Shown here piece by piece: positions 58,451-60,837 of a stretch of 64,000 nt of DNA. This DNA comes from Armatimonadota bacterium (GTDB taxonomy: Bacteria > Armatimonadota > Fimbriimonadia > Fimbriimonadales > Fimbriimonadaceae). The translations under genes were made by a program, and so were the position numbers. The DNA lies in NCBI GenBank assembly GCA_016125185.1, contig WGMG01000006.1, positions 1,240,001 through 1,304,000 of the forward strand. Direction: 5' to 3'. Numbering within the stretch: the first letter of the stretch is position 1; each line of letters begins with the position of its first letter. The notes below the pieces were generated by a model. That model saw only the letters and a program-made list of their open reading frames with translations. It was not told the DNA's origin and made no database searches.

Positions 58451-59623
58451 CTATGCCGAGTCCGATGGGATCGTGCTAACCTTGTCGTCCCTTACGAACC
58501 ATTTCAATATTGGAGCCGCTACCACCGAGGTCAGAAGCGACATCCCGACCAAGAGCGAGTAAATATCCTTGCCGATCACTTTGAACTGGAATCCGAGTCC
58601 GGCGACGATGATCCCAACCTCGCCACGGGGCACCATCCCCATCCCCACCACTTTACGGTTCTCCTTAGCGCCCAACCAAGCTCCCACGTACTTACCTGCA
58701 ATCGCCAGCACGGACACCAGCAAAAGATTGCCGATCGCCCCAAAGTTGTTGAAGGCCATGATGTCTACGTTCAGTCCGGCGGAAATGAAGAAGAATGGCA
58801 CGATGAACTCGTTGAGGTCGATGACCTTTTCGTGAATCCACTCCTTGTAATCCGTCTCGGCCAACACCGTTCCCACCAAGAACGCGCCGATGATGGCGGC
58901 CAAGCCGAGCTTGTTTGCCAGCACAGCCACGCCGATGCACAAAGCGATCGATAGCGACCAAATCGAGAGCGGGCTCATGGGCTTATCGAGCATTCGGCTG
59001 TTCTTCCGCGCGAATCGTCGTCCTAAGGTCGCCATCAGAACGATGAATCCGAGCGACTGGACAATCACGATCGCGATCGACAGAATATTCACCCCCTGAC
59101 CAGTTGAAAGGGCGGACACGATGGTCAAAACCAACATCGCCAGGACGTCGTCGATGACCGCCGCACCGAGAATGACCTGGCTGTAGGTTCGGTCAATCAC
59201 CCCTAACTCCTGCAAGACCTTCGCTGTGATGCCCGCGCTGGTGGCGATGAAAGCCGCCGCGACAAACGCCGCCTGGTTGTTGGGAAAGCCCGAAAAGTGC
59301 GCCCAGGCAAAGCCAATGACGAACGGGAAAATGACGCCGAGGATGGCAACCACCATCGCCTCCTTCCCTACCTTGCCGATCTTCTCGAAAGGCGTCTCAA
59401 GGCCGACCGAGAACAGCAGGAACGCCGCACCAAGCTCGCCCAAGTCATAAACGATGGAGTTCGGTTCTCCGCCGACCCACCCGAGCATCGACTTGCCGAC
59501 GACGATTCCGCCAAATATCTGGCCAACCACGGAAGGCATTTTCAGCCGCATCGCAATCTCGCCGCCAATGATCGCCGCCATGTAGGCGACGAAGATGGTG
59601 AGCAAAGTGGCGCCGTGATCCAT
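58451..59623 (-). CDS. CPA2-type cation/proton antiporter (Kef-like)
   Basis: A 390-residue membrane protein with about 12 hydrophobic helices. It begins with LLTIFVAYMAAIIGGEIAMRLKMPSVVGQI, typical of the Na+/H+ exchanger domain. FIATSAGITAKVL and GAAVIDDVLAMLVL contain the ion-binding Asp-Asp of CPA2 members. No TrkA nucleotide-binding domain follows, so it resembles the short GerN/NapA group that exchanges Na+ or K+ for protons. The start has a TACAAT box 17 bases upstream. Confidence 0.88.
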   Translation of the reverse strand: MDHGATLLTIFVAYMAAIIGGEIAMRLKMPSVVGQIFGGIVVGKSMLGWVGGEPNSIVYDLGELGAAFLLFSVGLETPFEKIGKVGKEAMVVAILGVIFPFVIGFAWAHFSGFPNNQAAFVAAAFIATSAGITAKVLQELGVIDRTYSQVILGAAVIDDVLAMLVLTIVSALSTGQGVNILSIAIVIVQSLGFIVLMATLGRRFARKNSRMLDKPMSPLSIWSLSIALCIGVAVLANKLGLAAIIGAFLVGTVLAETDYKEWIHEKVIDLNEFIVPFFFISAGLNVDIMAFNNFGAIGNLLLVSVLAIAGKYVGAWLGAKENRKVVGMGMVPRGEVGIIVAGLGFQFKVIGKDIYSLLVGMSLLTSVVAAPILKWFVRDDKVSTIPSDSA

Positions 59624-59713: not shown

Positions 59714-59779
59714 GTTAACGTAAGGTTAGCGGCTTGTTAAAGTCCCATTAACCTAAAGTTAAGCCCGCGTTAACCCCAG
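59714..59779 (+). promoter_or_regulatory. Six 11-bp direct repeats, Pho-box-like
   Basis: Units beginning (G/A)TTA(A/G) start at 59714, 59725, 59736, 59747, 59758 and 59769: GTTAAC, GTTAGC, GTTAAA, ATTAAC, GTTAAG, GTTAAC. Every step is exactly 11 bp. This is the layout bound by PhoB/PhoP/SphR-type response regulators, whose sites contain TTAA-rich half-sites on an 11-bp period. The array ends 13 bases before a CACTAT -10-like box (59793-59798), where an activator would replace the -35. It lies upstream of the pilin-like gene at 59841. The rest of the 217-base gap (59624-59840) shows nothing else clear. Confidence 0.7.
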
Positions 59780-59840
59780 ATTCCTGAAATCACACTATTT
59801 GAGTTGTAGGGAGCCCGAAAAGCTCTCACATGGTGTTCAA

Positions 59841-60779
59841 ATGAGAAAGGCCTTCACGCTCATCGAGCTTCTCGTGGTTATCGCAATCATCGCGATTCTT
59901 GCCGCTATTCTATTCCCGGTCTTCGCGCAGGCCAAAGCTGCTGCCAAGAAGTCCGCTGACCTCAGCAATCTTAAGCAGATCGGCACCGGTACCATGCTGT
60001 ACCTCGCCGACTACGACGACATGCTCTATCCGCACCGCTTTAACTGTAAGGTTAACGGCGCGCTTCAGACTTGTTCGCAGTACCTCGATGGCAACGGCAA
60101 CCTCACCGCCGAAGCTTCGAAGTTCAGCGGCGGTTCCGAGCAGCGATACTACTGGATGTTCATGCTCCAGCCGTACATGAAGAACAAGCAGATTTTCCGC
60201 AGCCCGATCCAGAGCGACGCTTTCGCCGCGAACGAGGGCCCGGTTCTCAACTGCACCGGCGCTGGCTGCATCGGTACCAACTACGGCGGCCAGAACAGCT
60301 ATGGTCACAACGATGGATGGCTCAGCCCGGCTGATCCGTTCGACGCTTCCGGTCAGGGTCTCGCTGCTGCGGTTAGCCACACTTCGATCAACAGCCCGGC
60401 AGGCATCATCATGATCGCCGATGCACGCTACTATGGCGCGGTTCCGGACATCATGAACGAATCCGGCAAGCTGGACCTCACGAAGTTTACGGGCACCGAG
60501 CTCACCGACATGCAGAACTTCATCAACAACCAGGGCGGCCAGTACAAGTACTACTGGAAGAACCTCGGTGGCGCCAACTGGAGCTACACCGGTGGCGAGT
60601 CGGGTCCTCTGGCGGCTGGCGCGGGTACGGCTAAAGCCTATGCCCTCGGTAAGGCTTTCGCGGGCGGCACGCTCAACGCTCAGTTCGCCGACGGCCACGC
60701 GAAGAACATCCCCTACGACCGAATCATTGGCGACATCTGCCTGTGGGCCGCGAAGGGCATCTCCGCTTGCGGCGGCTAG
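59841..60779 (+). CDS. Pilin-like protein with class III signal peptide (DUF1559-like)
   Basis: A 312-residue protein from the ATG at 59841 with leader MRKA and [20 protein letters not shown]. The head has [23 protein letters not shown], the usual LKQIG-x-YDD pattern, several cysteines ([18 protein letters not shown]), and the closing [18 protein letters not shown]. Codon use is notably regular and GC-rich, suggesting high expression. Frame continues to a TTG at 59799, but the leader argues for 59841. It is preceded by the 11-bp repeat array and followed by a strong terminator, so it is a single-gene unit. Confidence 0.88.
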
Positions 60780-60804
60780 TCCTCACGACGCAAAATTGAT
60801 CTCA

Positions 60805-60837
60805 AAGCCACCCCAAATTGGGGTGGCTTTTCTTTTG
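60805..60837 (+). terminator. Strong terminator after pilin-like gene
   Basis: An 11-bp perfect stem (AAAGCCACCCC and complement, loop AAATT) overlaps a T-rich tail ending at 60837. It closes the single-gene pilin unit. Confidence 0.95.

What the first reader, a model, noticed from the sequence alone, without database searches (positions are those of the whole stretch)
59714..59779. Six perfectly phased 11-bp TTA repeats upstream of a pilin-like gene: a Pho-box-like array
Seen: (G/A)TTA(A/G) motifs start at 59714, 59725, 59736, 59747, 59758 and 59769, each exactly 11 bp apart, ending 13 bp before a -10-like box. Known: PhoB/PhoP/SphR-family regulators bind direct repeats on an 11-bp period, often with TTAA-rich half-sites, and such sites can replace the -35. 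Inference: a DNA-binding response regulator, possibly phosphate-responsive, drives a major pilin-like surface protein. Six tandem units is long for such a site. I know of no description of this for Armatimonadota pilins.
Basis: partly seen in the sequence, partly recalled or inferred. Interest (0 to 1): 0.8.

Follow-up and report, generated by a model that had tools for sequence, protein, structure and literature searches.

The report
Pho-box array before a pilin-like gene
Six evenly spaced DNA repeats in front of a pilus-like surface protein gene match the phosphate-starvation switch found in front of the phosphate-uptake gene (pstS) in this whole bacterial group, so these bacteria probably make this surface protein when phosphate runs short.

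Summary
The same 11-bp motif (gene direction YCTTAACA) lies upstream of pstS in 36 of 49 relatives (1-9 of 49 at other spacings), with a TANNNT -10 at a fixed +16; in this genome the exact doublet occurs twice, before pstS and before another pilin-like gene. A matrix trained only on pstS scores the window array +29.9 (rest of window at most -34.9). Of 59 arrays in 121 genomes, 31 precede prepilin genes; others precede pstS, phosphate-selective porins and a glycerophosphodiesterase. A homologue of this pilin directly follows porin-pstSCAB in one genome; another pilin diverges from phoBR in a second. The candidate regulator is PhoB-like; its orthologue sits in a pstSCAB-regulator-kinase-phoU operon. 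Twist: in this clade the pilin's array is inverted relative to pstS, with the -10 exactly in 11-bp phase. Not shown: binding, phosphate-dependent expression, and what the pilin does. A known kind of operator with a new, phylum-wide pilin target.

The parts
59714..59779 (+). Six 11-bp units (GTTAACGTAAG GTTAGCGGCTT GTTAAAGTCCC ATTAACCTAAA GTTAAGCCCGC GTTAACCCCAG): predicted PhoB-family (Pho box) operator array, inverted relative to the pstS boxes of this group
   Evidence: pstS-trained matrix score 29.9 inverted / 22.0 canonical against a maximum of -34.9 in the rest of the window
59769..59773 (+). Last unit (GTTAA), starting 22 bp upstream of the -10 start, i.e. about where a -35 hexamer would lie
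59791..59796 (+). Predicted -10 hexamer CACACT; in 8 of 8 homologous promoters a NANNNT-type hexamer lies at an exact multiple of 11 bp from the phased array units
59841..60779 (+). Target gene: prepilin-like protein ([32 protein letters not shown]..., 312 aa), PF07963 N_methyl / TIGR02532
60804..60830 (+). Strong intrinsic terminator (12-pair stem) after the pilin gene, so the gene is probably transcribed alone
58451..59623 (-). Divergent cation/proton-antiporter-like gene on the other side of the array; a neighbour, probably not the target (no -10 at the pstS-type distance on that side)
   Evidence: name from reading the sequence, not from a family search

Best explanation
The array is a long Pho box: six half-sites bound head to tail by a PhoB-like response regulator (best candidate G000:C2:133764-134480), probably as cooperative dimers, when phosphate is scarce. 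The bound regulator takes the place of a -35 element and recruits RNA polymerase to the -10 at 59791-59796, switching on a single-gene transcript for a secreted, possibly filament-forming prepilin-like protein. The pilin belongs to a phosphate-acquisition set that in relatives also holds pstSCAB, phosphate-selective porins and a glycerophosphodiesterase. Shown here by sequence: the array, its statistics, motif and spacing identity with the pstS promoters, conservation upstream of homologues, gene-neighbourhood links to pst/phoBR, and the fixed -10 phase. Inferred: binding, activation rather than repression, the phosphate signal, the identity of the regulator, and a role of the pilin in phosphate scavenging or in secretion of scavenging enzymes.
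For: Array and chance. pstS upstream regions: CTTAACN5CTTAAC (>=10/12) in 36 of 49 at spacing 11, 1-9 of 49 at other spacings; T at +16, A at +17, T at +21 (TANNNT) in 72-78% of those 36 promoters. Exact doublet only twice in this genome: upstream of pstS and of the pilin at C6:1235152. The composite doublet + GGTA, searched in 85 family genomes, has 7 exact hits, all upstream of pstS. Matrix trained on pstS only: window array +29.9, rest of window at most -34.9. 31 of 59 distinct four-unit arrays in 121 genomes lie within 250 bp upstream of a prepilin N-terminus (genomes searched). Other neighbours are PstS x3, Porin_O_P x3 and GDPD. Synteny: porin-pstS-C-A-B-[array]-P0001 homologue in G025; phoU-pstBACS-[array]-phoR-phoB-[array]-divergent pilin with its own array in G109. 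Regulator: orthologue in 54 of 61 genomes; operon pstS-C-A-B-regulator-kinase-PhoU in G088; best TIGR02154 PhoB score among the seven own regulators scanned. Homologues in other Armatimonadota (L100, L101) carry canonical units followed by GGCGGTA, the pstS -10 context. In 8 of 8 close homologues the -10 lies at an exact multiple of 11 bp from the units.
Against: No binding or expression data. The own-genome regulator scores below the TIGR02154 equivalog cut-off (248.9 against 296.2 bits) and has no adjacent histidine kinase, so its link to phosphate rests on orthologues. Not all homologues carry the array (for example G029). With one mismatch allowed, the doublet is not enriched in the own genome (19 against 30 in the control), so only strong sites are informative. 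Only about 5-7 of 68 pilin genes of this genome have such arrays. The window array scores nearly as well in the other orientation. Two of the eight -10 hexamers fit only loosely and were picked after seeing the others.
Confidence: 0.86

Rival explanations
1. The array is bound by another OmpR/PhoB-family regulator with a similar 11-bp TTAA half-site (this genome has about ten) that answers a different envelope or nutrient signal; pstS is one target among several and the response is not specifically to phosphate.
For: Ten OmpR-type regulators in the genome. The best PhoB candidate is below the PhoB equivalog cut-off and has no kinase beside it. Some array neighbours are PEP-CTERM proteins with no known phosphate role.
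Against: Array targets recur as PstS, phosphate-selective porin and GDPD. The candidate's orthologue sits in a pst-regulator-kinase-phoU operon. Exact composite Pho promoters point only to pstS.
Confidence: 0.09
2. The array serves the divergent cation/proton antiporter (58451-59623), not the pilin; in that direction its units have the pstS orientation.
For: The array lies between the two genes and reads NTTAAC toward the antiporter. The closest homologue, in G009, keeps the same neighbour.
Against: Toward the antiporter there is no -10-like hexamer at the +16 position. In G025 the homologous array stands between pstB and the pilin with no divergent gene. Homologues keep the pilin-side -10 phase. 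Arrays in two more distant Armatimonadota point at the pilin.
Confidence: 0.04
3. Chance, or a structural A+T-rich helically phased element (DNA bending, nucleoid protein), without a specific regulator.
For: 11 bp is close to one helical turn.
Against: Shuffles and other periods give nothing. The motif is directional with a conserved C/G on one side and is conserved in unit and phase while the spacers diverge.
Confidence: 0.01

Closest known systems
SphR Pho box of cyanobacteria (CTTAACCT, at least three tandem 8-bp repeats; PMC1906773)
   Same: Same core TTAAC, tandem direct repeats upstream of pst genes; 8 bp plus a 3-bp linker gives the same 11-bp period
   Different: Here a doublet is usual at pstS, six units stand before a pilin, the array is inverted in this clade, and the phylum differs
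PhoB Pho box of Escherichia coli (two 11-nt direct repeat units; PMC4415409, PMC1906773)
   Same: 11-nt units bound head to tail; -10 a fixed short distance downstream of the last unit; replaces the -35
   Different: Half-site CTTAACA instead of CTGTCAT; six units; target is a pilin-like gene
Reverse-oriented PhoP boxes of the Salmonella PhoP regulon (PMC3335776)
   Same: An OmpR/PhoB-family activator used in both orientations, the reverse one shifted by about half a helical turn relative to the -10 (here core to -10 is 15 bp canonical and 21 bp inverted)
   Different: Its reverse boxes lie farther from the -10, none closer than 24 nt in natural promoters; that PhoP controls magnesium homeostasis, not phosphate
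Phosphate-linked Hxc type II secretion in pseudomonads (PMC2225411)
   Same: Links a phosphate-starvation protein to a pseudopilin-based secretion machine
   Different: In that study hxcR itself was not induced by low phosphate; here the operator is directly before a single large pilin-like gene

Membership tests
Pho box (PhoB/PhoP/SphR operator) | Tandem direct repeats with an 11-bp period, at least two units | tested here: met
   Six units
Pho box (PhoB/PhoP/SphR operator) | Same motif upstream of pstS/pst genes of the same and related genomes | tested here: met
   Own pstS CTTAACATTCTCTTAAC; 36 of 49 pstS
Pho box (PhoB/PhoP/SphR operator) | Fixed distance to the -10, replacing the -35 | tested here: met
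   +16 at pstS; +22, in 11-bp phase, at the pilin and 7 homologues; sequence only, two of the hexamers loose
Pho box (PhoB/PhoP/SphR operator) | A PhoB-family regulator encoded in the genome and linked to pst | tested here: met
   Candidate at G000:C2:133764; linked to pst only through orthologues
Pho box (PhoB/PhoP/SphR operator) | Binding by the phosphorylated regulator and induction by low phosphate | not testable with these tools
   Needs footprinting and expression measurement
PhoB equivalog TIGR02154 (for the own-genome regulator) | Score above the curated cut-off of 296.2 bits | tested here: not met
   248.9 bits; the best family hit of this protein and the best of the seven own regulators scanned; so PhoB-like, not a certified equivalog
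DUF1559 / PF07596 pilin-like protein (for the target) | Hit to PF07596 or to the H-X9-DG C-terminal domain TIGR04294 | tested here: not met
   Only PF07963 N_methyl in Pfam; in NCBIfam TIGR02532 is met and TIGR04294 is not listed
Type IV prepilin-like protein | Prepilin N-terminal cleavage/methylation motif | tested here: met
   PF07963 30.3 bits (cut-off 21.2), TIGR02532 31.2 bits (cut-off 16.3)

The most novel reading that the evidence does not exclude
A dedicated phosphate-starvation pilus or pseudopilus exists across Armatimonadota: a prepilin-like protein that is a core Pho regulon member, next to pstSCAB or phoBR in some genomes. In Fimbriimonadaceae it is driven by an inverted, multi-unit Pho array that works about half a helical turn away from the standard Pho promoter, an architecture not reported for phosphate regulators in the papers searched.
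Probability: 0.4. Interest if true: 0.75.

Novelty: new member of a known kind. Interest (0 to 1): 0.58.

Why it matters
Members of this phylum carry dozens of pilin-like genes each (68 here; 79 pseudopilin genes reported in Fimbriimonas ginsengisoli, PMC4072686), and their purpose is unknown. A phosphate switch in front of particular members gives a testable condition for making one of these proteins. It also supplies the Pho box consensus and promoter geometry for a phylum where the searches found none described, so Pho regulons can be predicted there. The inverted, exactly phased array is a natural test of how PhoB-type activators work in either orientation.

Tried and rejected
Tandem Repeats Finder does not see the array. 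PhoU was used as a marker, but both PhoU genes of this genome stand apart from pst. AlphaFold2 on the pilin with four homologues gave an unusable model (mean pLDDT 33.6), so no fold search was run; a profile search of solved structures matched only the N-terminal pilin helix. The generic sigma-70 scan finds no promoter at the pilin, as expected if the array replaces the -35. Chance, a DNA-bending element and the divergent antiporter as target were considered and rejected. The TTATCCACA repeats in L040 and L172 also match the GTTA pattern; they look like DnaA boxes and were left out of the counts. Paper searches for Armatimonadota with Pho regulon, DUF1559, pilin with Pho box, pseudopilin with phosphate, and type IV pili with phosphate starvation found no description of this link in the titles and abstracts listed.

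Full report
OBSERVATION. No other period from 5 to 40 gives more than three RTTAR in phase in the window, and none of 20,000 dinucleotide shuffles of the 217-bp intergenic region reaches three units at period 11. In the 4.5-Mb genome, exact four-unit arrays occur only here; the reversed control pattern gives none. The spacers are unrelated to each other, so this is a repeated protein site, not a duplicated sequence.

THE TARGET GENE. ORF 59841-60779 encodes 312 aa with a prepilin N-terminus (PF07963, TIGR02532). It gets no hit to DUF1559/PF07596 or TIGR04294, so 'DUF1559-like' is a resemblance, not a tested membership. An intrinsic terminator at 60804-60830 suggests a single-gene transcript. 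The genome has 68 genes with the prepilin motif. Only a handful have period-11 arrays: five at >=12/15, against none or one at other periods.

THE MOTIF IS THE PHO BOX OF THIS GROUP. I took pstS (PF12849) from 61 genomes and scanned the region upstream of 49 of them. A doublet CTTAAC-N5-CTTAAC with at least 10 of 12 matches, reading toward the gene, is present in 36 of 49 at spacing 11, in 1-9 of 49 at any other spacing from 7 to 16, and in 2 of 49 in the reverse direction. The unit consensus is TYYCTTAACA. In these 36 promoters a TANNNT hexamer starts 16 bp after the start of the last CTTAAC, usually preceded by GG (T+16 78%, A+17 72%, T+21 78%). This is close to the geometry of the E. coli Pho promoter and nearly the sequence of the cyanobacterial SphR box CTTAACCT (PMC1906773; 11-nt units: PMC4415409). 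Searched in 85 family genomes, the composite CTTAACN5CTTAACN8GGTA has seven exact hits, all upstream of pstS. In the window's own genome the exact doublet occurs twice: upstream of pstS (C4:168674) and upstream of another prepilin gene (C6:1235093) (compare). A position matrix made only from the pstS units gives the window array 29.9 (reverse direction) or 22.0 (forward) over six units; the best score elsewhere in the window is -34.9.

THE PILIN LINK IS NOT LOCAL. In 121 genomes of the phylum, four-unit GTTA arrays give roughly 65 matches, against 12 for the reversed control. After removal of DnaA-box-like repeats, 59 distinct arrays remain, of which 31 lie within 250 bp upstream of a prepilin N-terminus. 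Such stretches make up well under 1% of a genome (68 prepilin genes in 4.5 Mb here). The rest include PstS (three), phosphate-selective porin Porin_O_P (three), GDPD glycerophosphodiesterase (one) and PEP-CTERM secreted proteins (four). Of 20 homologues counting the window's own pilin (39-84% identity for the others), 19 have usable upstream sequence and 11 carry the array at >=12/15, against 0-3 at other periods. In G025 the homologue directly follows a porin-like gene, pstS, pstC, pstA and pstB, with its own array. In G109, of another family in the phylum, the order is phoU-pstB-pstA-pstC-pstS-[array]-phoR-phoB-[array]-divergent pilin with an array. Two further homologues (54-56% identity; a Chthonomonas-labelled MAG and an unnamed bacterium) have canonical units followed by GGCGGTA, the pstS -10 context.

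THE REGULATOR. The genome has ten OmpR-type response regulators. The one at C2:133764-134480 has the highest PhoB (TIGR02154) score of the seven scanned, below the equivalog cut-off (248.9 against 296.2), is closest to the regulator of the G109 pst locus (44% identity), and matches RegX3 best among solved structures. Its orthologue is found in 54 of 61 relatives, and in G088 it stands in the operon pstS-pstC-pstA-pstB-regulator-kinase-phoU. In Fimbriimonadaceae it has no kinase beside it, so the sensor is unknown.

ORIENTATION AND MECHANISM. pstS, porins, GDPD and most pilins have CTTAAC pointing at the gene: 24 of the 31 pilin arrays are of this kind. The window pilin and most of its close homologues have the reverse, GTTAAGG pointing at the gene (matrix scores). 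In eight of eight such promoters a -10-like hexamer (CACACT in the window at 59791-59796; TACACT, CACAAT, CAGAAT and the like elsewhere) lies an exact multiple of 11 bp from the phased units, 22 bp from the last one, although the spacers have diverged. Two of the eight hexamers (AAAACT, AAGAAT) fit loosely and were chosen after the others were seen. The TTAA core lies 15 bp from the -10 in the canonical form and 21 bp in the inverted form, a shift of about half a helical turn. That resembles the rule reported for reverse PhoP boxes in Salmonella, where however none lies nearer than 24 nt to the -10 (PMC3335776). I read this as activation by regulator dimers lined up on the array, with the last unit at the -35 position. 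Shown: sequence, phase and conservation. Inferred: binding, activation, signal.

ALTERNATIVES. Another OmpR-type regulator with the same half-site is possible but does not explain the recurrent PstS, porin and GDPD targets. The divergent antiporter-like gene (58451-59623) shares the intergenic region, but there is no -10 at the proper distance on that side, and the G025 homologue without that neighbour keeps the array. Chance is excluded.

VERDICT. It is a Pho box, a known kind of operator, in a phylum for which the searches found no description, placed in front of a phylum-wide pilin-like target whose role is unknown. The unusual parts are the pilin target, the six units and the inverted phasing.

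Noticed in passing
Own genome, e.g. C1:426156, C1:225961, C6:1624403, C6:1553911: At least 7 of 68 prepilin-like genes directly follow a gene ending like a LacI-family sugar-responsive regulator, as if different pilin-like proteins were wired to different nutrient signals.
   Followed up: partly
G000:C1:591825-591862 (L311 6825): A three-unit array lies directly upstream of a PEP-CTERM-like secreted protein gene; four PEP-CTERM genes in relatives also have arrays. Secreted PEP-CTERM proteins may belong to the same regulon.
   Followed up: partly
G000:C6:1235082-1235125: Upstream of two neighbouring prepilin genes there are units in both directions, GTTAAG N5 GTTAAG followed by GTTAAC N5 CTTAAC, a possible two-way Pho operator.
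   Followed up: partly
G000:C2:133764-134480 and orthologues (L279-L308): The PhoB-like regulator has no adjacent histidine kinase in Fimbriimonadaceae but has one in the pst operon of G088; the phosphate sensor in this family is unidentified.
   Followed up: no
window 60041-60060: A second TTAAC...GTTAAC pair (TTTAACTGTAAGGTTAACGG) lies inside the pilin coding sequence about 200 bp after its start; significance unknown.
   Followed up: no
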